Assembly (NCBI RefSeq): GCF_013408425.1
Contig: NZ_JACBYV010000001.1
Span: forward strand, 3,348,001-3,412,000
Length of the DNA: 64,000 nt
Direction: 5' to 3'
Source: Pseudomonas flavescens
GTDB lineage: Bacteria; Pseudomonadota; Gammaproteobacteria; Pseudomonadales; Pseudomonadaceae
Made by a program: the position numbers and the translations under genes. The notes under the pieces were generated by a model that saw only the letters and a program-made list of their open reading frames with translations, had not been told where the DNA came from and did not search any database. Positions 8,710-23,441 of this stretch are shown one piece after another; within the stretch, counting starts at the first letter, position 1; every line of letters starts with the position of its first letter.

Positions 8710-10140
8710 ATGACCGTGCTCAAAGCACTCAAAAAAATATTCGGCAAAGCCGAAAATGAGCCACACAGCTCAGTCTCCCCGACCATCGAGCCCTCCCCGC
8801 CACCCGCCAGCCCAGCTCGCGAGGAACGCCCACCGAGGCCACCGAAAGCGTCGGCTCCCGTTGCCCCGAAACCCCAGAGCAAACCCGCGAAACCTCGCCG
8901 AGAGCGCGCACCCAAGCCGGTCGACACCTGGAAGCTCGAAGATTTCAAGGTCGAACCAGCCCCTGGCAAGACCCGCTTCCACGACTTCAAGCTGTCCCCG
9001 GACCTGATGCATGCCATTCATGATCTGGGCTTCCCCTACTGCACGCCGATCCAGGCGGGCGTACTGGGTTACACCCTCAAGGGCCGCGACGCCATCGGCC
9101 GCGCCCAGACCGGCACAGGCAAGACCGCCGCCTTCCTGATTTCGATCATCACCCAGCTGCAACAGACCCCGCCGCCGAAAGACCGCTACATGGGCGAGCC
9201 GCGGGCCCTGATCATCGCGCCGACCCGCGAGCTGGTGGTGCAGATCGCCAAGGATGCGGCCGAACTGACCAAGTACAGCGACCTGAACGTCATGAGCTTC
9301 GTCGGCGGCATGGACTTCGACAAACAGCTCAAGCTGCTCGAATCACGCTTCTGCGACATTCTGGTCGCCACCCCGGGCCGCCTGCTGGACTTCAACCAGC
9401 GCGGTGAAGTCCACCTGGACATGGTCGAGGTCATGGTGCTCGATGAAGCCGACCGCATGCTCGACATGGGCTTCATCCCGCAGGTCCGGCAGATCATCCG
9501 CCAGACCCCGATGAAGGGCGAACGCCAGACGCTGCTGTTTTCCGCCACCTTCACCGAAGACGTGATGAACCTGGCCAAACAGTGGACCACCGATCCGGCT
9601 ATCGTCGAGATCGAACCGGAAAGCGTCGCCAGCGATACCGTCGAACAGCATGTCTACGCCGTCGCCTCGGCAGACAAGTACAAGCTGCTCTACAACCTCA
9701 TCGCTCAGAACGACTGGATCCGCGTGATGGTATTCGCCAACCGCAAGGACGAAGTACGGCGCATCGAAGAGCGCCTCACCCGCGATGGCATCAGTGCCGC
9801 GCAGATGTCCGGCGACGTGCCGCAGCACAAACGCATCAAGGTGCTCGAAGGCTTCCGTGAGGGCAGCATTCGCGTGCTGGTCGCCACCGATGTGGCGGGC
9901 CGAGGCATCCACGTCGATGCCATCAGCCACGTCATCAACTTCACCCTGCCGGAAACGCCGGATGACTACGTGCACCGCATTGGTCGTACCGGTCGTGCGG
10001 GCACCAGCGGCACCTCGATCAGCTTCGCCGGCGAAGACGACGCTTACGCGCTGCCAGCCATCGAAGCGCTGATGGGCCGCAAGATCGCCTGCGAAATGCC
10101 GCCAGACGAACTGCTCAAGCCCGTACCGCGCAAACACTGA
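8710..10140 (+). CDS. rhlB: DEAD-box RNA helicase RhlB
   Basis: 476-aa ATP-dependent RNA helicase. The N-terminal 90 residues are a Pro/Lys-rich disordered tail. Two RecA domains follow, with AQTGTGKT (132-139), PTREL, TPGR, DEAD (245-248), SAT and HRIGRTGR (422-429), all intact. The RhlB subgroup assists mRNA turnover and ribonucleoprotein remodelling; its longer N-terminal tail is usual in Pseudomonas. A short hairpin (GCAGGG-N7-CCCTGC near 8640-8658) separates it from the dipeptidase. RhlE is the alternative name within DEAD proteins, but the 'FHDFxLxPxLMxAIxDLGFxYCTPIQ' Q-motif fits RhlB better. Confidence 0.88.
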
Positions 10141-11331: not shown

Positions 11332-12018
11332 TCAGCCCGGGCGGTAGCGAGTCCACAGCCTGTCGAACTCACGCGCATACTCGGCGACCAGATGAGGGTC
11401 GTCGGTCACCAGCAGGTTTTCCTCGTTGCTGACACTGGCGCTGCGCGTCCAGTTGAAGCTGCCGTTGAGCAGCAGGCGCCCGTCGAACAGGGCGAACTTG
11501 TGGTGCATATGAAACGGGCTGTTGTCGATCCGCAGCGGCACGCCCTGGTCGATCAGGCGCTGGATATCGCTGCCGGCATCGAAGCGTTTCTCGTTGTCGC
11601 TGATGATCCGTACAGCCACGCCACGGCGGTGCACGGCGATCAGCTCGTCACTGAGCTGGTCATCGGAAATGGTGTAGACGCACACATCCACCGACTCCCG
11701 GGCCTGTTGGCATAGGCCGCGAATACGCTGACGGCAACTTTCCCCCGGGCTGAAATGCGCGCTGGCGTGGCCACGGGCCGGCGAGCAGCGCACCTCCAGG
11801 GTCTTGATCACCTGCTCCAGCCATTTCAGGGCCGGCATGGCGTCCTCGGGGTTGCCGACCAACTCGCGCACCAGAGAGAAGGCGCGGTTGCGCAGGTAGC
11901 GCACCTGATCAGGCGTCAGGTCGTTGCCCAGTTCACGCAGTTCATCTCGCTCATCGTTGCTGAGCGTGAGGTCCGCGAGGCTGTCACGCAGGTGTTGATC
12001 AAGGCGATCGAAATCCAT
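11332..12018 (-). CDS. PLD-like (single HKD motif) hydrolase
   Basis: 228-aa protein. A helical N-terminal segment of about 75 residues has no recognisable family. The rest is a phospholipase D-like domain with one HKD motif, HHKFALFD followed by G...LLNGSFNWT, as in Nuc endonuclease and mitochondrial cardiolipin hydrolase. These dimerise to form one active site and cut nucleic acid or phospholipid phosphodiesters. No signal peptide is visible. The ATG is two bases after the rhomboid stop (TAAAAATG), so it is translated with that gene. Last gene of the PspA-flotillin-ATPase cassette, which favours a lipid substrate, though a nuclease is equally possible by family. Confidence 0.82.
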   Translation of the reverse strand: MDFDRLDQHLRDSLADLTLSNDERDELRELGNDLTPDQVRYLRNRAFSLVRELVGNPEDAMPALKWLEQVIKTLEVRCSPARGHASAHFSPGESCRQRIRGLCQQARESVDVCVYTISDDQLSDELIAVHRRGVAVRIISDNEKRFDAGSDIQRLIDQGVPLRIDNSPFHMHHKFALFDGRLLLNGSFNWTRSASVSNEENLLVTDDPHLVAEYAREFDRLWTRYRPG

Positions 12019-12020
12019 TT

Positions 12021-12599
12021 TTAACCCTGCCGAGTTCGTTTTCGGGTGCGGCGCTTTTGCCCGCCCCGCTGCCATGAAGCGTAAAGTCCGCCGCACAATG
12101 CGCCAGCCAGGTGATATTCGAACGACACGCCCTGCTGCGGCAGCAGGCCGAAGAAGAAGCCGCCGTAGAGCACCAGAGCCAGGGCCGCCAGCAGCAGATC
12201 CGCGAAGCTGCGACGGAACCAGGCGCGCCCGAGCAGCAGCCCCCACAGCCCGAACAGCCAGCCACTGGAGCCGACATGAATGCCCGGGCGGCCGAACAGC
12301 CAGACCAGCAGACCACTGGCAACGATGATGAACAGGCTGGCACGGACGAACTCGCGGCGCGACTCCAGCAGGGCCAACGCGCCCAATACCAGAAAGCCGC
12401 TGAGATTGCCGAACAGGTGCAACCAACTGCCGTGCAGCCAGGGCGCCAGAAGCACGCCGGGGAGCGCTTCCAGCACACGCGGAATCAGCCCCCAGCGGTT
12501 CAGGCTGTAGCCGTCCAGGCTGTTGACCAGTTGCAGCACGACCATCAGTGCGGCGATACCGAACAACAACTTCAGCCGCGGCAACAGCCAGAGCGTCAC
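12021..12599 (-). CDS. rhomboid intramembrane serine protease
   Basis: 192-aa six-helix membrane protease that cleaves single-span membrane proteins within the bilayer. The nucleophile serine is in HVGSSGWLFG (family GxSG) on the fourth helix, and the partner histidine is in SFEYHLAGALCGG on the last helix. HGSWLHLFGN matches the conserved loop-1 / helix-2 HxxxN region. The start is GTG, and it overlaps the stop of the upstream ATPase as GTGA, so translation is coupled. The basic C-terminal tail (KRRTRKRTRQ) is cytoplasmic. The substrate is unknown; neighbouring membrane proteins of the same operon (flotillin, YqiJ-like) are candidates by location only. Confidence 0.87.
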   Translation of the reverse strand: MTLWLLPRLKLLFGIAALMVVLQLVNSLDGYSLNRWGLIPRVLEALPGVLLAPWLHGSWLHLFGNLSGFLVLGALALLESRREFVRASLFIIVASGLLVWLFGRPGIHVGSSGWLFGLWGLLLGRAWFRRSFADLLLAALALVLYGGFFFGLLPQQGVSFEYHLAGALCGGLYASWQRGGQKRRTRKRTRQG

Positions 12600-15500
12600 G
12601 GCGTGTCGCCGCCCTGCCCCATCATCCGGGCGATCTCACGCAGTTGCTGGGCCATGTCGCCCATACGCTTGTGGGTCCCCAGATCGATGTCGATCTTCTT
12701 GTCCATGGCATTGATCAGCGGCACCACACCGTCTTGCAGGCCATCGGCGAGGCGTTCGAGCAGCGCCTGGATGCCGGGTTGCGGCTGCGCCTGTACGGCC
12801 ACCTCCACCTTCGGCTGCACTTCGCGCAAGCGTTCCAGGCCAGCCAGCAGCTCCTGCCAGGGCACGGCGGCAGGCGCGGGCGCAGCCTGCTCGCCGCGAG
12901 CCAGGCCACGCACCCCCTCGACCAGATCGTTGAGCTGCGCCACCACGCGCCCGCCGATGTCGGAGTCGCTGCCGCCCATGGCCTTGTTGCGCATGAAATC
13001 GCGCTTGATCTGCGCCCAGCGCTCGAGCTGCTCGGGCGTCTGGTTGCCACGCAGCTCGGCGAGCTTGAGCAGATTTTCCTCGGCGCCGGTGGTCAGCAGC
13101 TGCGATTCGCCCTGGTAGTGATCGGCGATCAGTTGCAGCAGCTCGGCGTCGTTCATCACCGAGGAGATCTTCTCGGCCATCTTGTTCATGTTGCGGTAGC
13201 TGCCCTGCAGCTTGAACGAGGGCTCGGTACGGTACTCGTTGGCCTGGGCAGCACTGGCGATGTACTGCTGATTGACCTTGAGCACCACGTCGCGCACCTG
13301 CATCAGGCGCTGCAGGGTGGAGACGATTTCGTTGACCTCGGCGCCGCTGTAACCGTGGCTCAGTTCGTTGCTGGAGAACGGCTTGCCTTCGGCCTTGGCG
13401 ACGAAGCGATAGACATCGGCCATATCGCGGGTGGCCAGCGGCGCCAGCACCGGATTGGACGTCAGGCCGTTCTCGATGTAGCTGAGCGCGAAAGCCTCTT
13501 CCATGCCGCCCAGGGTATCGCCCAGGTTGTAGATATCCGCCCGGTTGGCCAGCATGTCAGGGATCTTGAATACGTCGCCGGACTCGGTATAGGGGTTGCC
13601 CGACATCACCACGCAGAACTTCTTGCCGCGCATGTCGTAGGTCTTGGTGCGGCCCTTCCACACGCCCTCGATGCGCCGGGTACCGTCGCACAGCGAGATG
13701 AATTTCTGCAGGAATTCCGGGTGGGTGTGCTGGATGTCGTCGACGTAGAGCATCACGTTGTTGCCCATTTCCAGCGCCAGGTTGAGCTTCTCCAGCTCCT
13801 GGCGAGAGGTGGCGTCGGGAGCCTGAGCCGGGTCGATGGACCGCACTTCGTGGCCGAGGGCCGGGCCGTTGATCTTCATGAAGATCAGACCGAGGCGGTG
13901 AGCCACGTACTCCATCAGGGTGGTCTTGCCGTAGCCAGGCGGCGAGATGAGCATCAGCAGGCCCATCAGGTCGGTGCGCTTGCTTTCACCGGCGGTACCC
14001 ATCTGCTTGGCCAGGTTGTCGCCGATGACACCCAGATACACATCGTTGATCAGCTTGTTGCGCACGAAGGAGGACAGCGGCCGTGGCTTGAACTCGCTCA
14101 GGCGCAACGCATCGCGCTCGCGATTGACCACCTCCTGACGCAGTGCCTGATAACGCTGCAGAGCCGGCAGGAACGTCTCGCGGTGGTGACGCAGACGCTG
14201 GAAGAAATCGTCCAGCGCGAATGCCAGGGTGCCCTGCTCGATGCGTGGATGATCGCCGAGCAGGCCGTCGACGCGCACCTGCAGATCCGCCTCGGTGACA
14301 CGAACCGGCAGCTCGGCATCGATAAGGCCGAGGGCCACGGCCTCGGGTACATAGGCCTGGGAGGCCGCGCTCTGTTCGGCGCAATAGGCACGCAGCCAGT
14401 TCTCCGCCAGCGCCCAGCGCTGATCGGGCCTTCCGCGCAGGCGCTCCTGGGCTTGCAGGTAGCCGTCCCACATGTGTGCGGTCTGCAGGTGCTGGCGCAG
14501 GCCGTCGAGCAGATCGCGGGCGTACTTGCTGACCACGAACTCGACGCGCTCGGCAGCCAGCTCTTCGACCAGATACTCGGCAGCCTCGCGCAACGGCGCC
14601 GCCTCGAACGGCATCGGGTGGCGTGCCAGGAACCCCTGCATCGCCGCCAGCACTTCGGCACGCAACTGCACCAGGCCTTCATCACGACCGAACAGCTTGC
14701 GGATGTTGGCGCAGGTGTGGGCGCGCTCGGCCCAGTGGGCGGCGTCCATGTCTTCGCGCCAGCGGTTCCAGAAGAACAATGCGAAACCACGGGCCAGAGG
14801 CGTGTAGGTCAACAGCCCGGCGCCTTCGCGCAGCGCCAGCAACCTGAGCAGGATGGCCACGGCGTCCTGGTCGTGAATGCCCTTCTGGTAGCCTTCCTTG
14901 TAGCGCGGTGCCGCGAACTCTCGGATGCGCTTGATCAGTTCCTCGGGCTGACTCATCTGCGCCTTGAGCAGGTCGAGGCTGAGCCCCTCGGCGTTACGCA
15001 CGGCGGCGTCGAGGACCAGACCGGCGAGGAACTCGCCGCGGTACAACGCGGCCGATTCCGACTCCAGCGCCACCTGCCAGTAATCGCGCAACGCCTCCAG
15101 CTCGCGGTCGTGCAGGGGTTCGAGAAAATCGGTGCCGGTCAGGTGCAGGAACAGCCCGTCGCCACGGGGCAGCAGGGTCAGGTCCAGTTCCTGGGTGTTG
15201 ACGGCGAAGCGGTGGCGCGGCCCCAGCTTGATGACATCACCGCCCTCTTCGAACAGTTCGCTCTTGTCGCGCAGCGCACGCACGGCCTGGTCCCGGGCGC
15301 CCTTCAGACGCGCCTCGACATCATCGGCCTTGACGCTGTCCTTGAGCTCGCGCAGGCGTTCGGCCAGTTCACGCAGCTTGAGAATCAGCGGGTCAGCGGC
15401 GAAGAACGCATTCAGTTCTTCGGCCTGGTCGAAACGCGCGGTGCGCCGGCCCAGGCTGTCGAGGATGCGCCGGGCGGCATCGAGCAGGGCCTGAGCCTTG

Positions 15501-17827
15501 CGCTGACGCTCGTCGAGCAGGGTCTGCTTGTGGGCCTCGAAGGTTTCCAGCAGCTCCTCGCGCTTGGCCAGAATGTCGCCGAGAAACTGCTCGTGGTCAC
15601 CGAACTGGCTCTCCAGTTCTTCAAGTTGCACCAGCAGACGCGACAGCTGCTCGTCGCAGCGCTCGGGATCCTGGGCCAGCGCCAGGGCGTTGGTGATGCT
15701 CTGGCTGAACAGCTTGAACTGGGCGCCGAACTGCGCCACGGTTTCCGTCGAGCCAAGCCCCTTGCGGCGCTGCTCGGCTCGCGCCTTGGCCTGGTTGAGC
15801 TTGGCGTACACCTCGGAAATGGCGTCGACGATGCGGGTCCGCTCGGTGGCATCGTCGATCTGCAGCGAAGCCATCAGCCCGGAGAGCATGTCCAGGTTGG
15901 CGGCCATCTCGCCCAGCCCTGCCAGGGGTTCGGCCAGTTGCGCCACGGTCTCGGCTTTCTGCGCCTGGGCATCGAGTGCCTGCAGGTTGTCGTGATACGG
16001 CTGTAGCGCGGCATCACCTGCCAGGTAGCTTGAAGTGGCAGCGGCAGTCTGCTCGCGGGCTTCGAGCAGCGCCTGCTCCATGGCGTCGATACGTGCCACG
16101 TCGATGTAGCGATAATCGCGGATGGTCAGCAACTGGCCGCGCTGGGCGGTGATGGCGTTGAGTGCCTCGACGTACTGCTCGACCTTGTCCCAGCTCTCCG
16201 AGCGCAGGCTCTCGAGCAGCGCCTTCTGCCGACTTTCCGCACTGGCCATGGCCGTGGCCGACTGCTGGCGAATGCTCTCGACCTTCTCGAATTCGTCGAG
16301 CACCAGCTCGCCGGTCGCCGCGATCTCGCGCAGCAACGGTGCCATACCCGCGCACTGCGGATCGCTGAGCCAGTGATAGACGTCGAACAGCCGCCGGGTG
16401 TTCTGACACAGCAGGGTGTAGCGCGGCACCGAGACTTCGCGGCTGTCGATCTCGCGGCTGAGGTTGAACAGGTCGGAGACGCCGCGCACCAGCTCGGCAT
16501 TGCCGATTCGCCCGAAGAAACCGCTGCGTGCCGGCTGACGCGCGGCGTACTCCTCGCTGCAGAATGGCGTCTGCCAGATCTGCATGGGGTGGATGCGCGT
16601 CGGTTCGTCGCCCTCGGCGGAAAAGATCACCATGCGCCCGTCTTCCAGGCGCGCGTAGCCGTGGCCGAAGATCGGGTTCTGCAGCTGCCGGGTGACCAGG
16701 TTGTAGGTCAGCAATACCGCCCGGCCTTCGCCCGGGTGGTAGAAGATGTATTGCACGTCTTCGCCATTGGGCGAACGCACCGAGCGCTTGAAGCGCATGC
16801 CGGCCATCGACTGCTCGAAGGTCTTGTGTTCACCGTTCTGCAGGTAATAACCGCCGGGGAAGATGATGCCGTGGTCTTCGGGCAGTTGCACGCAGGCCAG
16901 GCCGATGGCATCGATGCGCTCGACCTTGCGGGTCAGCCGGTTGAACACCAGATAGCGCCACTGTTCCTCGCGGTACGGCAGGATCTTCAGCAGAATCAGG
17001 CTACCCAGGGCAGCGAACTCGACCTGGGCATCGTCCAGCGACTGGGTCTTGTCCACCACCTCTTCGCGGTAGATGCCCTCGCCCTTCTCGGTGTTGTTCT
17101 CGACCTTGATCGTCAGGTCGCCACCGATGGTCTCGACGAATACCGTGTCGAGGATGTTCAAGTGCGGGAAGCGCCCGTTGACGGTCATGTCACGGGTGGT
17201 TTTCTGCCATTCGAAATCGAACGGCGCCGGCAGCGCGATATCGCGTTCGCCGCGGTTGTCGATGTAGCGCACGTCCTTGCCGTCGAGCGACAGTGACCAG
17301 CGAAACACGCGAATGTCGGTGATGCGCTCGCCAATCTGGAAGCTCGCCAGCAGCTTGCCGTCACGGATCGCCAGCTGCAGCAGCCGGGTGTTCTTGTAGT
17401 AGGTGTAGAGCTCGTTGAAGTCGTTGACGAAGCCGCTCTGCGCCAGGAAGGTGCCCTCGAGAACGATCGACTCGGCCTCATAGCCCTCCGGCCCTTCCAC
17501 CAGCCGGTAGAGCGAGAACACGTCGGCGACCGAGGTTTCCTTCTTCAGGCCGAGGAACACGTTGTAGCCGAACAGCAGCCAGTCGCCGACCTGGACGATA
17601 TCGCGGGCGATGCAGTTGTTCTCGGTACGGATGCGAACCCGACCGGTCACTTCCATCTGGCTGCTGCCGAACTCCTGTAGACGCTGCTCGTTCAGTGCCT
17701 CGGTATTTTGCCGCAGGCGCAGCCCCTGCTCCTGCAGGCGCTTGTGCAGCACCTCATAGGCACCGCCTTCGGCAACGGCTTTGTCGAGAATGTCCTGCTG
17801 GGTGTTTTCGGCTTGGGCGTCCGACAT
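12596..17827 (-). CDS. giant DUF3686-type AAA ATPase
   Basis: 1743-aa protein. Residues 1 to about 500 are beta-rich with propeller-like repeats (RDIVQVGDWLLFGYNVFLG and similar). About 510-870 are predicted long coiled coils. A mixed helical region follows. An AAA ATPase core has Walker A PPGYGKTT near 1297, Walker B MLYVDDIQ near 1359 and a sensor-like VMSGNPY near 1400. The C-terminal 150 residues are helical. No signal peptide or transmembrane segment is seen, so it is probably cytoplasmic. Databases often label this family 'DNA repair ATPase'; nothing in this sequence or its neighbours supports DNA repair. Encoded with PspA and flotillin, a membrane-remodelling machine is the better guess. 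Confidence 0.85.
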   Translation of the reverse strand: MSDAQAENTQQDILDKAVAEGGAYEVLHKRLQEQGLRLRQNTEALNEQRLQEFGSSQMEVTGRVRIRTENNCIARDIVQVGDWLLFGYNVFLGLKKETSVADVFSLYRLVEGPEGYEAESIVLEGTFLAQSGFVNDFNELYTYYKNTRLLQLAIRDGKLLASFQIGERITDIRVFRWSLSLDGKDVRYIDNRGERDIALPAPFDFEWQKTTRDMTVNGRFPHLNILDTVFVETIGGDLTIKVENNTEKGEGIYREEVVDKTQSLDDAQVEFAALGSLILLKILPYREEQWRYLVFNRLTRKVERIDAIGLACVQLPEDHGIIFPGGYYLQNGEHKTFEQSMAGMRFKRSVRSPNGEDVQYIFYHPGEGRAVLLTYNLVTRQLQNPIFGHGYARLEDGRMVIFSAEGDEPTRIHPMQIWQTPFCSEEYAARQPARSGFFGRIGNAELVRGVSDLFNLSREIDSREVSVPRYTLLCQNTRRLFDVYHWLSDPQCAGMAPLLREIAATGELVLDEFEKVESIRQQSATAMASAESRQKALLESLRSESWDKVEQYVEALNAITAQRGQLLTIRDYRYIDVARIDAMEQALLEAREQTAAATSSYLAGDAALQPYHDNLQALDAQAQKAETVAQLAEPLAGLGEMAANLDMLSGLMASLQIDDATERTRIVDAISEVYAKLNQAKARAEQRRKGLGSTETVAQFGAQFKLFSQSITNALALAQDPERCDEQLSRLLVQLEELESQFGDHEQFLGDILAKREELLETFEAHKQTLLDERQRKAQALLDAARRILDSLGRRTARFDQAEELNAFFAADPLILKLRELAERLRELKDSVKADDVEARLKGARDQAVRALRDKSELFEEGGDVIKLGPRHRFAVNTQELDLTLLPRGDGLFLHLTGTDFLEPLHDRELEALRDYWQVALESESAALYRGEFLAGLVLDAAVRNAEGLSLDLLKAQMSQPEELIKRIREFAAPRYKEGYQKGIHDQDAVAILLRLLALREGAGLLTYTPLARGFALFFWNRWREDMDAAHWAERAHTCANIRKLFGRDEGLVQLRAEVLAAMQGFLARHPMPFEAAPLREAAEYLVEELAAERVEFVVSKYARDLLDGLRQHLQTAHMWDGYLQAQERLRGRPDQRWALAENWLRAYCAEQSAASQAYVPEAVALGLIDAELPVRVTEADLQVRVDGLLGDHPRIEQGTLAFALDDFFQRLRHHRETFLPALQRYQALRQEVVNRERDALRLSEFKPRPLSSFVRNKLINDVYLGVIGDNLAKQMGTAGESKRTDLMGLLMLISPPGYGKTTLMEYVAHRLGLIFMKINGPALGHEVRSIDPAQAPDATSRQELEKLNLALEMGNNVMLYVDDIQHTHPEFLQKFISLCDGTRRIEGVWKGRTKTYDMRGKKFCVVMSGNPYTESGDVFKIPDMLANRADIYNLGDTLGGMEEAFALSYIENGLTSNPVLAPLATRDMADVYRFVAKAEGKPFSSNELSHGYSGAEVNEIVSTLQRLMQVRDVVLKVNQQYIASAAQANEYRTEPSFKLQGSYRNMNKMAEKISSVMNDAELLQLIADHYQGESQLLTTGAEENLLKLAELRGNQTPEQLERWAQIKRDFMRNKAMGGSDSDIGGRVVAQLNDLVEGVRGLARGEQAAPAPAAVPWQELLAGLERLREVQPKVEVAVQAQPQPGIQALLERLADGLQDGVVPLINAMDKKIDIDLGTHKRMGDMAQQLREIARMMGQGGDTP

Positions 17828-17912
17828 CGTGGTCTTCCTGAATCTGCGCTGTCTGCAAGCAAAAGCGCGCCTACCGCGAGAGGGCGGCGCGAAAAGCGAT
17901 TTCTAGCGGTGC

Positions 17913-18152
17913 TCAGGCACCGATCTTCCTGGCGACTTCGGCGAGCTTGTCGCGCATCGGCTGGTCGAGTTCCTCCGGCTTGATGCGGGCGATGATCCGC
18001 GTCAGCACACGAATCTCGTTGTCATCGATCACGCCGTCGCGCTCGGCGATCGCCAGCAGCGAGCCCAGTTCGTCTGCATCCAGGCGGCCGTCGTCGGCAA
18101 AGCACTGGATCGAACGAAAGGTCATTTCCAGATGATCTCTTGGTTCTGACAT
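17913..18152 (-). CDS. small TerB-like acidic helical protein
   Basis: 79-aa soluble protein. Two acidic turns, ADDGRLDADELGSLL and ERDGVIDDNEIRVL, resemble the paired acidic helix-loop-helix units of TerB/DUF533-type domains, which bind metal or act as membrane-stress adaptors. It is about half a full TerB domain, so the family call is tentative. The ATG has AAGGAA 7 bases upstream; an open frame extends upstream but lacks a start signal. It lies between flotillin and the giant ATPase and is separated from flotillin by two strong hairpins, so it and the ATPase may be expressed at a different level. Confidence 0.65.
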   Translation of the reverse strand: MSEPRDHLEMTFRSIQCFADDGRLDADELGSLLAIAERDGVIDDNEIRVLTRIIARIKPEELDQPMRDKLAEVARKIGA

Positions 18153-18196
18153 GAAACATTCCTTGTAGAGTGATTGAACGCTGTATCTGCAACGTG

Positions 18197-18273
18197 TGGC
18201 AGGGAGCAGGCTTACCTGCTCCCTGCCATCGCGAAGCGGTTGGTTGCATGGGGCGCCAGCGACGCCCCATGCA
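18197..18273. other. tandem intercistronic hairpins
   Basis: Two perfect inverted repeats sit back to back between the flotillin stop and the TerB-like start: 14-base arms TGGCAGGGAGCAGG / CCTGCTCCCTGCCA with a 4-base loop (18197-18228), and 11-base arms TGCATGGGGCG / CGCCCCATGCA with a 7-base loop (18245-18273). Neither has a U-tract, so they look like mRNA-stabilising or processing structures rather than full terminators. Confidence 0.75.
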
Positions 18274-18280
18274 TCGTGCA

Positions 18281-20329
18281 TCACGCCTGCTCGGTATCCG
18301 GCTGCACGGGCTTGGCTTCCGGTACGCGGCCCTGCAACAGACGGGCAAGCACGTCCTGAACCACCGGGCTCTTGCCAACCACGCCCTCGATGGCCTTGCC
18401 CACCGACAGCGACTTGGCGAACGAGTTGAAGAAGTCGCCTTCGCCGCCGACGATCTCGATCTTCGCCTTGGCCAGCGCGGTGGCCAGAACCTCGGCCTGA
18501 TCCTTGGCGATTTCCTTGTTCGCCGCGATGGCCGCCATGGCTTCCTCGAAGCTCTTCTCCAGCTGCATGCGGAACTCTTCGTGCTGACGGGCGTTGTCGC
18601 TGAGCGCGTCGAGGGCACCGAACTTCTTGCCCAGGCCTTCCGCTTCGGCGTTCAGACGCTCCAGCAGTACCTGCGCCTCGGCCATGCCCAGATCCTGGGT
18701 CGCCTTGGCCTTGGCCACGCCGAGCTGCTCTTCGCCTCGTGCCTGCGCGCCGAGCTTCTCTTCCAGCACCTTGGCATCGGCCAGGCCGTCCTTCTCCTTG
18801 GCTGCCGCCTGCGCTTCGGTCACACGAGCCTGGGCCAGGCCCTTCTCCTGCTCGCCCTTGGCTTCGGCAATCAGACGTTCGGCCTGCACACGAGCCTCGG
18901 CGAGACCTTCCTTCTCCTTGGCTGCAGCGGTGACTTCACGCACCCGCGCATCGGCCAGACCCGGCGCAGCGCGCTCGGCTTCGATACCCTCGGCGAGCTT
19001 CTTCTTCGCCTCGGCGCTCTTGGCAGCGGCCTCCAGCTCGGCCTGGGCGAGGTTGTTGATTTCCACCGCCTTGTGCTTGGAACGGGTTTCGTCCGCTTCG
19101 GCCTGCTTGACCTGGCGCACCAGCTCCTGCTCGGCTTCGGCCTGGGCATTGATCACGGTGACCTGCTTCATGCGCTCGGCTTCGGAAACCTCACGGACTT
19201 CCTTGATGCGCTCCTCTTCCTGAGCCACGGTCTTCTCGACCGCAACCCGCTCGCGCACCACGCTGGCGATGTTCTTGCGCTCTTCTTCCAGCGCCTTTTC
19301 CTTCTCGATGCGCTGCAGTTCGACTTCGCGCTCGCGGGCCACCACTTCCAGATCCTTGGCGCGGGTCACCTTCTCGACCTCGATGACCACCGCACGCTGG
19401 CGGTTCTGCTGCGCCACTTCCACTTCGCGCTGATGGTTCTCGGCGCGGATGTCGAGCTCCTGCTGGGTCTGGATGCGCGCCTGCTCGGCCTTCAGACGCT
19501 CTTCTTCCTTGACCTTGAGGGTTTCCGCCTGCTCACGGGCCTGGATGGTTTCGATCTCGCGTTTCTGGCGCGCTTCGGCATCGGCCTGCTGACGCTCGAG
19601 GGCCAGCGTCGCCTCGCGGGTTTCGACGTTCTTCTTCTTGATCGCCAGTTCTTCGTTGCGCTCCAGGTCATTGGTGATGACGTTCTGCGCAGCGGTCAGC
19701 TGGGTGATCTTGCGGATACCCTCGGCGTCGAGAATGTTGCTCGGGTCCAGAGAGCTCTTGGCGGTCTGCTCCAGGTAATCGATGGCCACGTCTTCGAGCA
19801 CGTAACCATTGAGGTCGTTGCCGATCACCTCGACGATGCGGTCACGGAATTCCTGACGGTTCTCGAACAGCTGGACGAAGTCGAACTGCTTGCCGACGGT
19901 CTTCAGGGCTTCGGAGAACTTGGCGTTGAACAGCTCGTTCACCGCCGCACGATCGGAGGCACGCTCGACGCCGATGGCCTTGGCGACCTTGAGCACGTCT
20001 TCCTGGGTCTCGTTGACGCGCAGGTAGAACGCCACGGTGATGTCCGCGCGCATGTTGTCGCGACAGATCAGCCCGTCTTTGGCGCGGCGATCGACTTCCA
20101 GGGTGATCAGGGAGATCTTCATGAACTCCTTGAGGTGGATGACCGGGTAGACCAGCGCTCCGGTGAAGTGCACCTTGGGCGTCGACGACATGTCGTTGAC
20201 GATCAGCGCCGTCCCCTGGGGAACCTTGATGTAGAAGGCCTTGAACAAGGCCAGCAGCCCAACGATCAGCAGGGCGACCAGGCCGACCCCGACCAGCACG
20301 GGAATCAACGACGGTGGAAGGTTATACAT
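18281..20329 (-). CDS. yqiK: flotillin-family protein (YqiK-like)
   Basis: 682-aa membrane-anchored scaffold. One N-terminal transmembrane segment (about residues 9-29) is followed by an SPFH/band-7 domain to about 210. A long Glu/Ala/Lys coiled coil runs to about 600, with internal repeats of the type AKEKxGLAxAxV (about 490-560). A hydrophobic C-terminal flotillin tail ends it. YqiK-type flotillins organise membrane microdomains. The ATG at 20329 has GGAG 10 bases upstream; an in-frame TTG three codons earlier sits too close to that site. It follows the YqiJ-like gene, the usual partner. Alternative label: 'band 7 protein'. Confidence 0.92.
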   Translation of the reverse strand: MYNLPPSLIPVLVGVGLVALLIVGLLALFKAFYIKVPQGTALIVNDMSSTPKVHFTGALVYPVIHLKEFMKISLITLEVDRRAKDGLICRDNMRADITVAFYLRVNETQEDVLKVAKAIGVERASDRAAVNELFNAKFSEALKTVGKQFDFVQLFENRQEFRDRIVEVIGNDLNGYVLEDVAIDYLEQTAKSSLDPSNILDAEGIRKITQLTAAQNVITNDLERNEELAIKKKNVETREATLALERQQADAEARQKREIETIQAREQAETLKVKEEERLKAEQARIQTQQELDIRAENHQREVEVAQQNRQRAVVIEVEKVTRAKDLEVVAREREVELQRIEKEKALEEERKNIASVVRERVAVEKTVAQEEERIKEVREVSEAERMKQVTVINAQAEAEQELVRQVKQAEADETRSKHKAVEINNLAQAELEAAAKSAEAKKKLAEGIEAERAAPGLADARVREVTAAAKEKEGLAEARVQAERLIAEAKGEQEKGLAQARVTEAQAAAKEKDGLADAKVLEEKLGAQARGEEQLGVAKAKATQDLGMAEAQVLLERLNAEAEGLGKKFGALDALSDNARQHEEFRMQLEKSFEEAMAAIAANKEIAKDQAEVLATALAKAKIEIVGGEGDFFNSFAKSLSVGKAIEGVVGKSPVVQDVLARLLQGRVPEAKPVQPDTEQA

Positions 20330-20419
20330 TGCGCTCAATCTCCTTTGAGGCGGATGGAACCGGCTGAAAGCTGGATCACGACCTGCCGGACTGCTGCCCG
20401 GCAGACGCTGATCAGCGCA

Positions 20420-21046
20420 TCAGATACCCCGGAACTCTTCTTCAGTTATCACCCGGTAAGCATGCTGCGCTTCCAGGTATTCCAGTAAAACGACACGGTC
20501 GCCACGCTTGAAGCCCAGCTGTTCGTCAGCCCGAACCCGCAGAATCAGGCCGGCACCACCGTCTTCGAGCATGGCCTCGCCATGGCTGGCGGTCACCCGG
20601 CCACTGCGCACCACGGCGGTCTGACCGAGCACGCTCTTGCTGCTGGTCACTTCCAGTTTGAGGAACAGCGGGCGCAGCGGCGCGCACAGCAGGCGCGTCG
20701 GCGGCACGGCAAGAAACAACGCGGCCACTGCCACCAGCGCGCCCAGGGGGTAGCGCAGCCACTCCAGTGGCAACAGGCCAAGCCCCCAGAGGTCGACGAA
20801 GTAGCTGATGAACCAGGCGAAGAAAGACAGCAGGGTCAGCACCAGGGTGAGCGGTACGTCACGCAGCTTGAGTTTGGACAGGAGTGCCGCGGCCGGGCCG
20901 TCCAGTGCGGAGTCGGCTTCGACGTCGAGCACGTCGATCTCGATCAGGCCAAACGCGACGATGACCCAGTACACCACCGCCAGACACAGCAGGAAGCTGA
21001 AGATGACGGTGGGGAAAGCCAGCGAGATCTGCAGGAAGATTTCCAT
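20420..21046 (-). CDS. yqiJ: YqiJ-like (DUF1449) OB-fold membrane protein
   Basis: 208-aa inner-membrane protein. A hydrophobic N-terminal segment, then a short acidic loop (IDVLDVEADS) and two or three more membrane segments lie up to about residue 120. A C-terminal OB-fold beta barrel follows (VLGQTAVVRSGRVTASHGEAMLEDG...RGDRVVLLEY), as in NfeD-type partners of flotillins. It is the membrane co-factor of the downstream flotillin gene. AGGAAATC precedes the ATG. A small hairpin lies in the 90 bases before flotillin (CTGCCGG-N8-CCGGCAG). Confidence 0.85.
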   Translation of the reverse strand: MEIFLQISLAFPTVIFSFLLCLAVVYWVIVAFGLIEIDVLDVEADSALDGPAAALLSKLKLRDVPLTLVLTLLSFFAWFISYFVDLWGLGLLPLEWLRYPLGALVAVAALFLAVPPTRLLCAPLRPLFLKLEVTSSKSVLGQTAVVRSGRVTASHGEAMLEDGGAGLILRVRADEQLGFKRGDRVVLLEYLEAQHAYRVITEEEFRGI

Positions 21047-21135
21047 GATTTCCTATCCCTGAAAAACATGGCAGAGCCCATCGGCTCCACCATTCATGAC
21101 GTACCACAGCCACCTGTCGTGGCTGGCCCGATGAA

Positions 21136-21831
21136 TCAGGGCTTGGCTTTGTCCTTGAGACGCGCCAGCACGCTGTCGGCACTGGTCTTGTCGGCGACGA
21201 TACCCGCCGCACGCAGCTTGGCATCCAGCGAGTCATCCGGGGTGGACGCCTCGGCAAGCTCGGCCGCGGCTTCCATCTTGGCCGCACGCTCCGCCTGCTG
21301 CTGCTTGATGCGCTCCAGCGACTCGACCGCCGTGTGCAGCTTGGCCTGGGAACCACCGTAGCGCTGCGCCACGGCCATCTGCGCCTTCTGCACGCTTTCG
21401 GTCGCCTTGACGGTGTCCACCTGCTGCTTCAGGCGTTTGATGTTGGCCTCGGCCTGGGTCACGGCCTTGCGCAATTGCGCCACGCTGGCGGCATAGCCAT
21501 CAGCCTGTTCACGATCGCTGGCCAGCTCGATCTCCAGGTTGGCGATCTTGCCGGCCACTTCACCGGCCAGTGCCTCATTGCCCGCTTCCAGGGCCTTGAG
21601 CGCGTATTGCTCGTACTCGGCGACCTTGGCTGCGGATTTACCGGCACGTTCGGCGGCCAGCTTCTGCTTGGCCATGATCTCGGCCAGGGCTTCCTTGGAT
21701 TTGCGCAGTTCGACATCGGCGTCGCGGATTTCCTGATCGAGAATGCGCAGCGCCTGCCCATCGACCAGCGTCTCACCCAATTCGTTGGCACCGCCACGCA
21801 GCGCCGTCAGCAATTTGCTCCAGACGTTCAT
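21136..21831 (-). CDS. PspA/IM30-family protein (YjfJ-like)
   Basis: 231-aa coiled-coil protein of the PspA/IM30/Vipp1 (ESCRT-III-like) superfamily, which binds the inner face of stressed membranes and polymerises. It starts MNVWSKLLTALRGGANELGE, an amphipathic N-terminal helix, then has nearly continuous helix to about 190. The short C-terminal part 'TPDDSLDAKLRAAGI' is typical of the YjfJ subgroup rather than enterobacterial PspA. No PspF or sigma-54 promoter lies nearby, unlike the classical psp operon. GGAGAAAC precedes the ATG, 12 bases after yjfI. Confidence 0.9.
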   Translation of the reverse strand: MNVWSKLLTALRGGANELGETLVDGQALRILDQEIRDADVELRKSKEALAEIMAKQKLAAERAGKSAAKVAEYEQYALKALEAGNEALAGEVAGKIANLEIELASDREQADGYAASVAQLRKAVTQAEANIKRLKQQVDTVKATESVQKAQMAVAQRYGGSQAKLHTAVESLERIKQQQAERAAKMEAAAELAEASTPDDSLDAKLRAAGIVADKTSADSVLARLKDKAKP

Positions 21832-21843
21832 CAGCGTTTCTCC

Positions 21844-22458
21844 TTATGCACTGGCCTTGAGGAAGTCTTCGTAGGCTTCGGTCGCCTTGATGACGTTGTC
21901 TGCCAGGGTTTCGATCTCCAGCACCACGTTGGGCAGGATCGACGAGGCACTCAACGCACCGAACATGGTGTAACAGGCCTGCCCGTCGGGCAGGGTTTCG
22001 AGGCCGACGCTGGAGAGCGGGAAAAGCTTGTGGCTACGCAGCACTTCCTCGTTGAAAGCGGCAGTATCGCGCACGTCACTGGCAGGCCAGAGCAGCGCCT
22101 CGACGATGATCTGATCACCGAATACCGCAATGAACAGCGGCAGATCACCATAGTCCTTCATGGTCACGTGCAAACTGGCATCGGCGCCCTGAATCAGCTC
22201 GACGGCAGCGCGGCCATCAGCAAACGGCTCTGCCCCTGAAAGCGCATCGAACAACGTTTGTGCAGTCCAAACCTGAGGCATGCTCACCCCCTCCTCCATT
22301 GAAGCCAGCTCCGACTGGGGCTGGCGCAGTTTCCGTTCGACCGCCGAGAGCCGCTGGGCATGCTCGGGCAGTATCCAGACTTCCTTTTTCACCAGCCCCT
22401 GTTCGCGCAGACGCTGGCGAAAGAGACGCTGATAATGAGCTGAGGATTTGTTTTCCAT
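21844..22458 (-). CDS. YjfI-like protein with RHH-like N-terminus (DUF2170)
   Basis: 204-aa protein, first gene of the cassette. Residues from about 64 onward match the DUF2170/YjfI type (WTAQTLFDAL...AEPFADGR... to EAYEDFL), a family found beside PspA-like genes and otherwise uncharacterised. Residues 1-50 form an extra unit: a basic helix (YQRLFRQRLREQGL), a strand KKEVWIL, proline, then a helix, which resembles a ribbon-helix-helix DNA-binding module. It could therefore be the cassette's own regulator. This is inference from pattern only. The start at 22458 has no clear Shine-Dalgarno, and the predicted promoter would make a nearly leaderless message. Confidence 0.75.
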   Translation of the reverse strand: MENKSSAHYQRLFRQRLREQGLVKKEVWILPEHAQRLSAVERKLRQPQSELASMEEGVSMPQVWTAQTLFDALSGAEPFADGRAAVELIQGADASLHVTMKDYGDLPLFIAVFGDQIIVEALLWPASDVRDTAAFNEEVLRSHKLFPLSSVGLETLPDGQACYTMFGALSASSILPNVVLEIETLADNVIKATEAYEDFLKASA

Positions 22459-22465
22459 GAAACGC

Positions 22466-22494
22466 AGACTAGAACATTACATGTGACATATCAA
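22466..22494 (-). promoter_or_regulatory. predicted sigma-70 promoter of the cassette
   Basis: On the minus strand, TTGATA (22494-22489), 17 bases, TAGTCT (22471-22466). Transcription would begin at about the ATG of the YjfI-like gene. The -10 is a modest match. Confidence 0.4.
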
Positions 22495-22509
22495 CGCATC
22501 ACATGTAAT
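22476..22509. promoter_or_regulatory. paired inverted operator-like site
   Basis: Perfect 11-base inverted arms ATTACATGTGA (22476-22486) and TCACATGTAAT (22499-22509) are separated by 12 bases. Each arm contains the palindrome ACATGT, and the two centres lie 22 bases (two helical turns) apart. The promoter -35 lies between the arms and one arm lies inside the -35/-10 spacer, a layout expected for a repressor operator. Confidence 0.65.
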
Positions 22510-22554
22510 TAATTTAAGGCCGTCGATCAGGCCTGGAATGATGCGAAGGAATGG

Positions 22555-22695
22555 ATGGAGCGGGAGACATCCCGACAATTAAACCGATTGCGCGAGGAAA
22601 AATCCGCCGACCCTTTCGCAGTTGCGCAAAAGCCAGGACGCAACGACCGCGCCATCAATTGGCTAGCCTTGGCATCCGGCTGCGAACCGGTATGA
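22555..22695 (+). CDS. possible small ORF or 5'-truncated remnant
   Basis: A 46-codon frame with AAGGA 4-5 bases before the ATG. The translation looks protein-like (MERETSRQLNRLREEKSADP..., then a Trp-containing helix ending ASGCEPV). The same frame stays open upstream to about 22513 (..FKAVDQAWNDAKEW), with no start codon. Third-position GC is visibly lower than in the neighbours. It may be a real short gene transcribed away from the operator, or the 3' end of a lost gene. No family recognised. Confidence 0.3.
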   Translation: MERETSRQLNRLREEKSADPFAVAQKPGRNDRAINWLALASGCEPV

Positions 22696-22718
22696 TTCGC
22701 CCCTTTTCGGAAAGCCGC

Positions 22719-23441
22719 ATGCCGTCCCGCAGCCTCCTCGCCCTGCTCTGCCTCATCCTCTGCACATCGATCTTCGCCGCACCACCGCAAACCTTCAGCC
22801 AGGCCAAGAAAATCGGCTGGAAGCTCTATGAGCGTCAGTCGGTGGAGTTCTACTGCGGCTGCAGTTTCAGTGGCAACCGCGTCGACCTGAAAAGTTGCGG
22901 ATACACCCCGCGCAAGAATGCCAACAGGGCCGCCCGGATCGAGTGGGAACACATCGTCCCAGCCTGGCAGATCGGCCACCAGCGCCAGTGCTGGCAAAAC
23001 GGCGGCCGGCAGAACTGCAGCAAGAACGACAGCGTGTATCGCCGCGCCGAGGCCGACCTGCACAACCTGGTACCGGCGATTGGCGAGGTCAACGGAGATC
23101 GCAGCAACTACGACTTCGGCTGGCTACCCCAGGCGCCCAGCCAGTATGGCGCCTGCGCGACGGTGGTCGACTTCAAGGCCCGCAAGGTCATGCCGCGCAA
23201 GGAAGTACGCGGCATGATCGCCCGCACTTACCTGTACATGAGCGACCGCTACAAGCTCAAGCTGTCGAGACAGAATCGCCAGCTGTTCACCGCCAGGAAC
23301 AAGACCTACCCGGCGCAGCAGTGGGAACGCCAGCGCAACCAGCTGATGGGGTGCGTCATGGGCTGGGCAAACCCCTACGTCGGGCAACTGGACAAGCGCT
23401 TGTGCCAGCAGGCACCGATTACTGCCGTCAATCGGCAGTAG
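22719..23441 (+). CDS. endA: secreted endonuclease I (EndA-type DNase)
   Basis: 240-aa periplasmic or extracellular nuclease. Signal peptide 1-20 (MPSRSLLALLCLILCTSIFA, cleavage before APPQ). The endonuclease I fold carries the beta-beta-alpha-metal site WEHIVPA with its histidine, and the downstream AEADLHNLVPAIGEVNGDRSN block typical of EndA/NucM. Several cysteines form disulfides. It degrades DNA non-specifically for nutrient recovery. GGAAAG lies before the ATG at 22719; an earlier in-frame ATG (22692) would place nine residues before the signal peptide and is less likely. Confidence 0.92.
   Translation: MPSRSLLALLCLILCTSIFAAPPQTFSQAKKIGWKLYERQSVEFYCGCSFSGNRVDLKSCGYTPRKNANRAARIEWEHIVPAWQIGHQRQCWQNGGRQNCSKNDSVYRRAEADLHNLVPAIGEVNGDRSNYDFGWLPQAPSQYGACATVVDFKARKVMPRKEVRGMIARTYLYMSDRYKLKLSRQNRQLFTARNKTYPAQQWERQRNQLMGCVMGWANPYVGQLDKRLCQQAPITAVNRQ

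What the first reader, a model, noticed from the sequence alone, without database searches (positions are those of the whole stretch)
11332..22458. Eight-gene PspA-flotillin-giant ATPase-rhomboid-PLD cassette
YjfI/DUF2170, PspA, YqiJ-like OB-fold protein, YqiK flotillin, TerB-like protein, a 1743-aa DUF3686 AAA ATPase, a rhomboid protease and a PLD-type hydrolase follow each other on one strand, with gaps of at most about 130 bases. PspA, flotillin and YqiJ are known membrane-stress partners, and the ATPase is known near them. The coupled addition of a membrane protease and a phosphodiesterase is what I find unusual. It suggests a module that senses, remodels and processes damaged membrane. 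The common 'DNA repair ATPase' label of the big protein is not supported by this context.
Basis: partly seen in the sequence, partly recalled or inferred. Interest (0 to 1): 0.9.

Follow-up and report, generated by a model that had tools for sequence, protein, structure and literature searches.

The report
Self-repressing PspA membrane-stress operon with rhomboid
This is a Pseudomonas version of a known membrane-stress gene cluster; its first gene looks like a two-product switch that turns the cluster off by itself, and an intramembrane protease turns out to travel with its core proteins in two different gene clusters.

Summary
The eight genes are real and lie where stated. Genes 1-6 fit the published Pseudomonas bac operon, and a PLD gene in this operon type is already in print (Ravi 2024). 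The rhomboid link I found in no paper of the library searched. In 199 genus genomes 56 of 59 homologues of this rhomboid sit in a PspA operon: 14 at bac, 42 in the separate yjf operon. Plasmid pQBR103 carries yjf genes, rhomboid, YqiJ-like, flotillin and ATPase as one run.

The most interesting point lay elsewhere. BacA (DUF2170) has a basic N-terminal module outside the 8q8o crystal construct. Operons whose BacA has it carry twin ACATGT palindromes over the promoter: of 98 operons 51 have both, 45 neither, 2 module only, 0 sites only. In 16 of 16 such genus genomes the twin occurs once, there. The BacA start looks leaderless (0 of 48 with a Shine-Dalgarno). A second, Shine-Dalgarno-led start inside bacA (47 of 53) would give a BacA of about 145 residues without that module. 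I read BacA as a two-isoform autorepressor tied to PspA. Fold, binding and isoforms are untested.

The parts
22499..22508 (-). distal operator TTACATGTGA
   Evidence: perfect inverted repeat with the proximal site; the pair matches once in 64 kb (up to 3 mismatches), 0 in 100 shuffles
22477..22486 (-). proximal operator TCACATGTAA, inside the promoter spacer
22489..22494 (-). -35-like TTGATA
   Evidence: read from sequence; in 36 of 53 upstream regions with a site the best -35-like hexamer starts 10 or 11 bases before the ACATGT core
22466..22471 (-). -10-like TAGTCT, 17 bases after the -35-like hexamer; weak (3 of 6 to TATAAT)
   Evidence: the simple promoter scan did not list it
21844..22458 (-). 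bacA long form: basic N-terminal module (about residues 1-46) + DUF2170/CesT-Tir-like domain; start without Shine-Dalgarno, 7 bases after the -10-like hexamer
21844..22281 (-). bacA short form from internal ATG (codon 60) preceded by GGAGGAGG: 145 residues, DUF2170 domain only (predicted)
   Evidence: close to the extent of crystal 8q8o
21136..21831 (-). bacB / PspA family
21068..21093 (-). hairpin with T tail between pspA and yqiJ (possible attenuator or processing site)
20420..21046 (-). YqiJ-like membrane protein (bacC by order)
   Evidence: named by operon homology
18281..20338 (-). flotillin-like (SPFH) protein (bacD by order)
   Evidence: named by operon homology; the gene at this place on pQBR103 is annotated SPFH
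17913..18152 (-). TerB-like small protein (bacE by order)
   Evidence: weak
12596..17827 (-). DUF3686 AAA ATPase, 1743 residues (bacF by order)
12021..12599 (-). rhomboid protease, GTG start overlapping the ATPase stop
11332..12018 (-). PLD-superfamily hydrolase, one HKD motif (HMHHKFALFDGRLLLNGSFN)

Best explanation
A PspA-based envelope-stress operon (the bac operon plus rhomboid and PLD) under its own repressor. SHOWN by sequence comparison: BacA and YjfI proteins that carry a short basic N-terminal module go with operons that have ACATGT or ACGCGT palindromes upstream; those without it almost never do; bacA starts without a Shine-Dalgarno at a fixed distance from the operator; a second start with a Shine-Dalgarno lies between the module and the DUF2170 domain; the rhomboid subfamily is tied to PspA-DUF2170 operons of two kinds. 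INFERRED: the module binds the palindromes as a dimer and BacA represses its own operon; the long form comes from a leaderless mRNA and the short form, lacking the module, from the internal start; the DUF2170 (CesT/Tir-like) domain binds PspA, so that PspA drawn to a damaged membrane changes repression. I favour PspA acting as co-repressor, because that gives negative feedback. Once induced, PspA coats the damaged inner membrane, the SPFH protein and YqiJ hold the site, the ATPase remodels or extracts, the rhomboid cuts membrane segments of stranded proteins and the PLD acts on phospholipid (possibly cardiolipin) or another phosphodiester.
For: Module and ACATGT twin go together: of 98 operons with distinct flotillins 51 have both, 45 neither, 2 module only, 0 sites only. 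On the flotillin tree 7 independent pairs differ in the module; the sites go the same way in 6, the opposite way in 0, no difference in 1 (p 0.031). Twin sites (up to one mismatch each): 49 of 54 distinct upstream regions of module-bearing bacA against 1 of 2700 shuffles. Whole genomes: the exact ACATGT twin pattern occurs in 17 of 41, one place each, before bacA (16 of 16 genomes with a module-bearing bac) or yjfI (1); 0 of 5 genomes whose bac operon lacks the module; reversed-pattern control 0 of 41 (yjfI pairs with wider spacing fall outside this pattern, lone sites were not scanned). Module residue goes with core: K 55 of 55 ACATGT; R 15 of 17 ACATGT, 2 none; H 24 ACGCGT and 2 both of 26; no module 0 of 31 ACATGT and 1 of 31 ACGCGT. 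That one, G320 (L023), has a decayed module, and its bac operator is of the ACGCGT type used by yjfI in the same genome. Plasmid loci fetched afterwards: R-type yjfI on pQBR103 and pPlaYM7902A have the only exact ACATGT site of their 16.6 kb just upstream (plus imperfect copies); a short DUF2170 on a third plasmid has none. Module resembles regulators, weakly and below curated cut-offs: UrfF plasmid repressor in 23 of 26 members (best E 6.8e-5), MazE-like antitoxin 17 of 26 (0.0018), a phage regulator family 14 of 26 (0.014). Published: a bacA transposon mutant accumulates the other Bac proteins (PMC10948618, abstract and passages); BacA-BacB interaction predicted at 0.981 (PMC13092808, passages). 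Starts: Shine-Dalgarno at 0 of 48 bacA starts against 35 of 48 pspA starts; linker ATG with Shine-Dalgarno in 47 of 53 bacA against 7 of 143 other internal Met codons and in 33 of 33 distinct long yjfI. Rhomboid: 56 of 59; one run of genes on pQBR103.
Against: The fold of the module is not confirmed: AlphaFold gives helix 6-19, an extended stretch and helix 31-45 at pLDDT 41-67 in the whole protein and 49-86 alone; this is not a textbook ribbon-helix-helix. The module's PDB profile search gave only two weak hits (E 0.031 and 0.35), neither called a repressor, and the family scans also list unrelated families (for instance Ser_hydrolase, 6 of 26). L078, L136 and L168 have the module without proper twin sites. 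The H versus K/R split lies largely in one Pseudomonas clade, so it is few events. A sigma54 promoter was proposed in PA14; the window has a fair GG-N10-GC match about 196 bases before bacA (10 of 12; 6 of 200 shuffles as good) and several genus loci have 9 of 12, but at differing places. The -10-like hexamer is weak. No transcript, protein or binding data exist here; isoforms and leaderlessness are predictions. Rhomboid: 0 of 21 fetched DUF2170 loci outside the genus have it, some of them on short contigs; about half of the genus's non-bac DUF2170 places lack it; three genomes keep it without any DUF2170.
Confidence: 0.7

Rival explanations
1. An unrelated regulator binds the palindromes; BacA is only a CesT-like partner of PspA and its N-terminal segment has another role (for instance PspA or membrane binding).
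For: DUF2170 loci without the module often use another palindrome, GACATAATATGTC (16 of 31), and must have some other regulator; the module's fold is unresolved.
Against: Sites and module are gained or lost together, site core varies with the module's residue, one place per genome (G320 has two), rewired operator where the module decayed (L023).
Confidence: 0.15
2. The operon is controlled by sigma54, as proposed for PA14, in the manner of E. coli pspA-PspF.
For: PMC10948618 section 3.5 (passage) proposes a -24/-12 site; the window and L069 have GG-N10-GC matches of 10 and 9 of 12 about 196 bases upstream.
Against: The strict pattern is absent from 67 of 70 upstream regions and relaxed matches are not at a conserved place; the conserved element has a sigma70-like geometry.
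Confidence: 0.1
3. The rhomboid and PLD are hitchhikers that happen to lie at the end of the operon in one lineage.
For: Not seen at 12 of 12 DUF3686 loci outside the genus (two contigs too short to tell) nor at 21 of 21 fetched DUF2170 loci outside the genus (rhomboid); lone rhomboids persist beside YaeQ-RecJ in 3 genomes.
Against: Rhomboid in 56 of 59 genus cases in a PspA operon, of two types; also at bac in Cellvibrio, Limnobaculum, Exilibacterium and others, between pspA and yqiJ in L090 and divergent upstream in L093; one run of genes on pQBR103; PLD also in 15 named loci outside Pseudomonas/Stutzerimonas (one 1.8 kb away).
Confidence: 0.15
4. The large ATPase is a DNA repair protein and the cluster serves DNA metabolism.
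For: Pfam and plasmid annotation call DUF3686 'ATPase involved in DNA repair'; one-HKD PLD proteins include the nuclease NucT.
Against: Its steady neighbours are YqiJ, flotillin and often PspA; none of the eight genes matches a repair family other than through that label and weak AAA/RuvB hits of the ATPase domain.
Confidence: 0.05

Closest known systems
Pseudomonas bac operon bacA-F (PMC10948618; PMC2587700, listing only)
   Same: BacA matches the NCBIfam BacA model above cut-off and crystal 8q8o of PA14_16140 is the closest structure; bacB has a PspA_IM30 domain; genes 3-6 equated by order (my inference: the word ATPase does not occur in the paper)
   Different: Rhomboid and PLD are not part of the published six-gene operon; the word 'DNA-binding' does not occur in the paper, which proposes sigma54 control; its crystal spans only what is residues 62-204 here
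CesT/Tir-PspA + band-7/flotillin + AAA+ + YqiJ operon of Ravi et al. 2024 (PMC11237479)
   Same: Core gene set and the optional PLD gene
   Different: Rhomboid not mentioned (0 occurrences); no operator, and DUF2170 not described as fused to a DNA-binding module, in the section and passages I read
yjfIJKLMC-type operon (third group of Ravi et al. 2024)
   Same: DUF2170-PspA pair, same rhomboid subfamily and operator logic in Pseudomonas
   Different: Polyamine, K+ channel and DUF350 genes instead of YqiJ-flotillin-ATPase; E. coli K-12 yjfI is short, without module or site
E. coli psp (PspF-PspA)
   Same: PspA tied to its own operon's regulator (recalled)
   Different: There a sigma54 activator; here a proposed repressor fused to the PspA-binding domain
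Mitochondrial SPY complex (SLP2-PARL-YME1L)
   Same: SPFH-type protein + rhomboid + AAA protein at one membrane (PMC13365137 passages)
   Different: Analogy only; no protease domain was found in the ATPase here and PspA is added

Membership tests
bac / CesT-Tir-PspA-flotillin-AAA operon | DUF2170-PspA pair followed by YqiJ, flotillin and DUF3686 ATPase on one strand | tested here: met
bac / CesT-Tir-PspA-flotillin-AAA operon | co-transcription | not testable with these tools
   only PA14 RT-PCR in print
E. coli-type psp system | sigma54 promoter with PspF beside pspA | tested here: not met
   no conserved -24/-12; none of the eight genes is a PspF-type activator and the gene upstream is endonuclease I; the genome was not searched for pspF
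rhomboid protease | Ser-His dyad (GxSG, His in last helix) and HxxxxHxxxN | tested here: met
   74 of 78 rows, the window's among them, match all three patterns; in the other four, by eye, the Ser and His remain
rhombosortase | TIGR03902 above cut-off | tested here: not met
   28.5 bits against cut-off 84
PLD (HKD) hydrolase | HxKx4Dx6GSxN motif | tested here: met
   read; PF13091
PLD (HKD) hydrolase | phospholipid rather than nucleic-acid substrate | not testable with these tools
   NucT and DrmC models also match below cut-off
ribbon-helix-helix repressor | beta-alpha-alpha dimeric fold | tested here: inconclusive
ribbon-helix-helix repressor | palindromic operator at its own promoter | tested here: met
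   presence and association only; binding untested

The most novel reading that the evidence does not exclude
One gene, two opposed products: bacA/yjfI makes a DNA-binding repressor from its first start (leaderless in bacA) and, from an internal Shine-Dalgarno start, a repressor-less form that still binds PspA. The ratio of the two forms and the pool of free PspA together set a membrane-repair operon in which a rhomboid protease is a dedicated third partner of the PspA-DUF2170 pair, used in two different operons and joined into one on a megaplasmid.
Probability: 0.42. Interest if true: 0.85.

Novelty: new variant of a known kind. Interest (0 to 1): 0.72.

Why it matters
How PspA operons without PspF are switched on is, as far as I know, largely open. 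If BacA/YjfI is the switch, the question becomes testable in one binding assay and one reporter. The solved BacA structure would then be, in extent, that of the short product, which would explain why a DNA-binding part was not noticed. A protease that keeps company with PspA-DUF2170 in two operons names a possible missing partner of bacterial membrane repair, with a mitochondrial parallel (SPFH-rhomboid-AAA).

Tried and rejected
Sigma54 site: strict pattern found in 3 of 70 upstream regions (a first pattern had the spacing wrong by one base and is not used); relaxed search not at a conserved place. First profile tables for PspA and PLD picked up shadow frames inside other genes and were redone with trimmed seeds. 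In one search some long proteins (L039, L120, L167) were missed by the motif pattern; one search uses a wider one. Shine-Dalgarno counts left out five loci whose start call was unsure (L080, L095, L097, L100, L106). In one search L100 counts as without sites because its start call lies too far upstream. Rhombosortase: below cut-off. MazE-like relative against the PDB: one meaningless hit at E 0.38. Fold search of the module alone could not be run.

Considered and rejected: DNA-repair module; rhomboid as partner of the ATPase specifically (only 14 of 59 in the genus). Literature searches behind 'unreported': 20 of 47 listed; 8 of 1,419 listed; most subscription papers and all preprints are outside that library.
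Full report
Observation. The window lies in a 5.95-Mb single-contig genome, closest among fetched relatives to Pseudomonas flavescens (99% best-segment identity over the ATPase, L069). The eight genes are there, on one strand, with the gaps claimed. The PLD gene is shorter than the listed ORF (11332-12018).

What is already known. Genes 1-6 fit the P. aeruginosa bac operon, shown by RT-PCR to be one transcript from bacA to bacF (PMC10948618: abstract, passages, section 3.6 and part of section 4 seen). BacA and PspA are matched directly; genes 3-6 are equated by order, which is my inference. Ravi et al. 2024 describe the CesT/Tir-PspA pair with YqiJ, flotillin and a novel AAA+ ATPase and add that some Proteobacteria have a PLD hydrolase in it (PMC11237479: passages, and the section on these operons whole). 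The word rhomboid does not occur there nor in Popp et al. 2022 (PMC9239133, passages). A library search for rhomboid + PspA + 'phage shock' gave 4 papers, none of which looks by its listing to be about this link; 'DUF3686' gave none.

Distribution. DUF3686 is patchy: 21 of 199 genomes of the genus, 10 of 369 of the class, 8 of 249 of the phylum; the window's own genome is counted in each. In the genus, rhomboid is at the bac locus in 14 of these 21 and PLD in 15 of 21. Among the 80 best named loci (of at least 584 relatives; chosen by similarity, so not a random sample, and overlapping the unnamed set), 68 have 2 kb or more downstream of the ATPase: 17 hold the rhomboid (10 Pseudomonas/Stutzerimonas, 7 others) and 26 the PLD (11 and 15; one of the latter, L078, lies 1.8 kb away). 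L090 and L110, with less downstream sequence, also have the rhomboid. None of 12 DUF3686 loci outside the genus from the phylum and class samples shows either; in two of them (L030, L032) the contig ends within 350 bases of the ATPase.

The rhomboid belongs to PspA-DUF2170. Searching the window's rhomboid in 199 genus genomes finds it in 59: 14 at bac; I fetched all other 45. 42 of the 45 lie directly after pspA in a different operon, DUF2170-PspA-rhomboid-(K+ channel)-YjfK-YjfL-YjfM-YjfC (in one, L155, the contig ends before DUF2170), and 3 stand alone before YaeQ-RecJ. YaeQ-RecJ also lies within about 6 kb downstream of the bac operon in 15 of the 20 other genus loci, and the three lone rhomboids fall inside the bac clade of the tree, so I read them as relics after loss of the other bac genes. 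In L090 the rhomboid lies between pspA and yqiJ and in L093 divergently upstream of bacA. Of 59 rhomboid-bearing genomes 55 have DUF2170, against 42 of 140 others (by my count; Fisher 1e-17, related genomes not corrected for). Limits: of 81 non-bac DUF2170 places of the genus 41 have it next door (by my count), and 0 of 21 DUF2170 loci fetched outside the genus have it (some contigs are short, L181 ends right after DUF2170; three further places, already held as bac loci L037, L039, L040, lack it too). The own genome has one other rhomboid, GlpG-like by my reading. On plasmid pQBR103 the genes YjfI, PspA, rhomboid, DUF2491, DUF350, DUF1190, glutathionylspermidine synthase, a YqiJ-like protein, SPFH and DUF3686-type ATPase follow each other on one strand (the YqiJ-like and DUF3686 names there are my reading of an unnamed and a 'DNA repair ATPase' gene): both operon types in one run.

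The operator. Upstream of bacA the window has, on the gene's strand, TTACATGTGA-N12-TCACATGTAA (22477-22508), unmatched elsewhere in 64 kb and in 100 shuffles. Similar pairs stand before bacA in other Pseudomonas and in Cellvibrio, Lysobacter, Delftia, Gilliamella and others. Over 54 distinct upstream regions of bacA genes with the N-terminal module, 49 have two sites with at most one mismatch each, spacing 22-24 bases in 37 of 49, against 1 of 2700 shuffles. In the window the proximal site falls in the spacer of a TTGATA-N17-TAGTCT promoter-like arrangement.

Who binds it. Operons without the module lack the ACATGT twin: 51 both, 45 neither, 2 module only, 0 sites only among 98 (duplicates removed by identical flotillin; loci with too little upstream sequence or a short flotillin left out; L023, whose site is of the ACGCGT type, counts as neither). 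Independent pairs on the flotillin tree: 6 same way, 0 opposite, 1 no difference (p 0.031). Whole-genome scans find the exact ACATGT twin in 17 of 41 genomes, once each, before bacA or yjfI, and the exact ACGCGT twin in 24 of 40, before yjfI except one extra in G320 before its bac operon. The variable residue in the VKxExWxLPE stretch goes with the site core: K and R with ACATGT, H with ACGCGT. G320's BacA has only a decayed module, and its bac operator has become the ACGCGT type, as if YjfI had taken over. Plasmid loci fetched later agree, with one exact site and imperfect copies each, and E. coli K-12 yjfI, which lacks the module, has no such site. DUF2170 loci without the module often have GACATAATATGTC instead (16 of 31), so another regulator serves them.

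Two starts. The fixed 24-27 bases from core to ATG (47 of 48), lack of any Shine-Dalgarno (0 of 48, against 35 of 48 for pspA) and C at -1 (43 of 48) suggest a transcript that begins at the ATG. In the poorly conserved linker, 51 of 53 distinct bacA genes have a Met codon and 47 of 53 one with a Shine-Dalgarno, against 7 of 143 other internal Met codons and 90 of 1060 random codons; all 33 distinct long yjfI have one too. The product would be 145-160 residues, 145 in most Pseudomonas. The crystal 8q8o (PA14_16140) aligns to residues 62-204 only. The two genes without any linker Met, L078 and L136, are the two without twin sites. NCBI's BacA model spans 206 positions, so the long form is already annotated; what is proposed here is its function.

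Mechanism. Published facts that fit: Bac proteins rise in a bacA mutant (PMC10948618) and a BacA-BacB complex is predicted with high probability (PMC13092808, passages). I therefore propose a self-contained PspA switch: the long form represses; PspA, bound by the DUF2170 domain, tunes it; the short form competes for PspA or for dimer partners. Direction of the PspA effect and role of the short form are guesses. For the output side I propose cooperation of SPFH protein, rhomboid and AAA ATPase at damaged membrane, as in the mitochondrial SLP2-PARL-YME1L complex (PMC13365137 passages), with PLD acting on a phosphodiester; no substrate is known.

Weak points. AlphaFold does not settle the module's fold, and its family hits are weak. 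The leaderless start, the isoforms and the repression are predictions. The sigma54 proposal for PA14 is not excluded for this clade. P. aeruginosa itself was not among the records I could name, so PA14 was not compared directly except through 8q8o.

Noticed in passing
L023 (G320) bac locus and G320 yjf locus L049: BacA has lost its N-terminal module and the bac operator is of the ACGCGT type used by yjfI of the same genome: a natural rewiring.
   Followed up: partly
L197 (pQBR103 84000-104000): yjf genes, rhomboid, YqiJ-like, SPFH and DUF3686-type ATPase in one run of genes on a megaplasmid, beside an MvaT/MvaU gene.
   Followed up: partly
L195, about 9330-10023: On plasmid pPlaYM7902A the rhomboid between pspA and the DUF2491 gene is frame-broken and unannotated.
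   Followed up: no
window 21068-21093: GC-rich hairpin with T tail between pspA and yqiJ; folded stretches, some with T tails, recur there in other Pseudomonas loci. Possible attenuator separating bacA-pspA from the rest.
   Followed up: partly
DUF2170 loci without the module, e.g. L175, L178, L182, L121: A second palindrome family, GACATAATATGTC, in one to three copies upstream; its regulator is unknown.
   Followed up: no
L041-L043: Intact lone rhomboids before YaeQ-RecJ in three genomes without DUF2170, at the usual place of the bac operon.
   Followed up: partly
window 22551-23441 +: Endonuclease I gene divergent from bacA; the operator lies in the shared upstream region.
   Followed up: no
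L168: yjf locus in which DUF2170-PspA is divergent from YjfK-L-M-C and no clear operator is seen although the module (VKRDVWVPP) is present.
   Followed up: no
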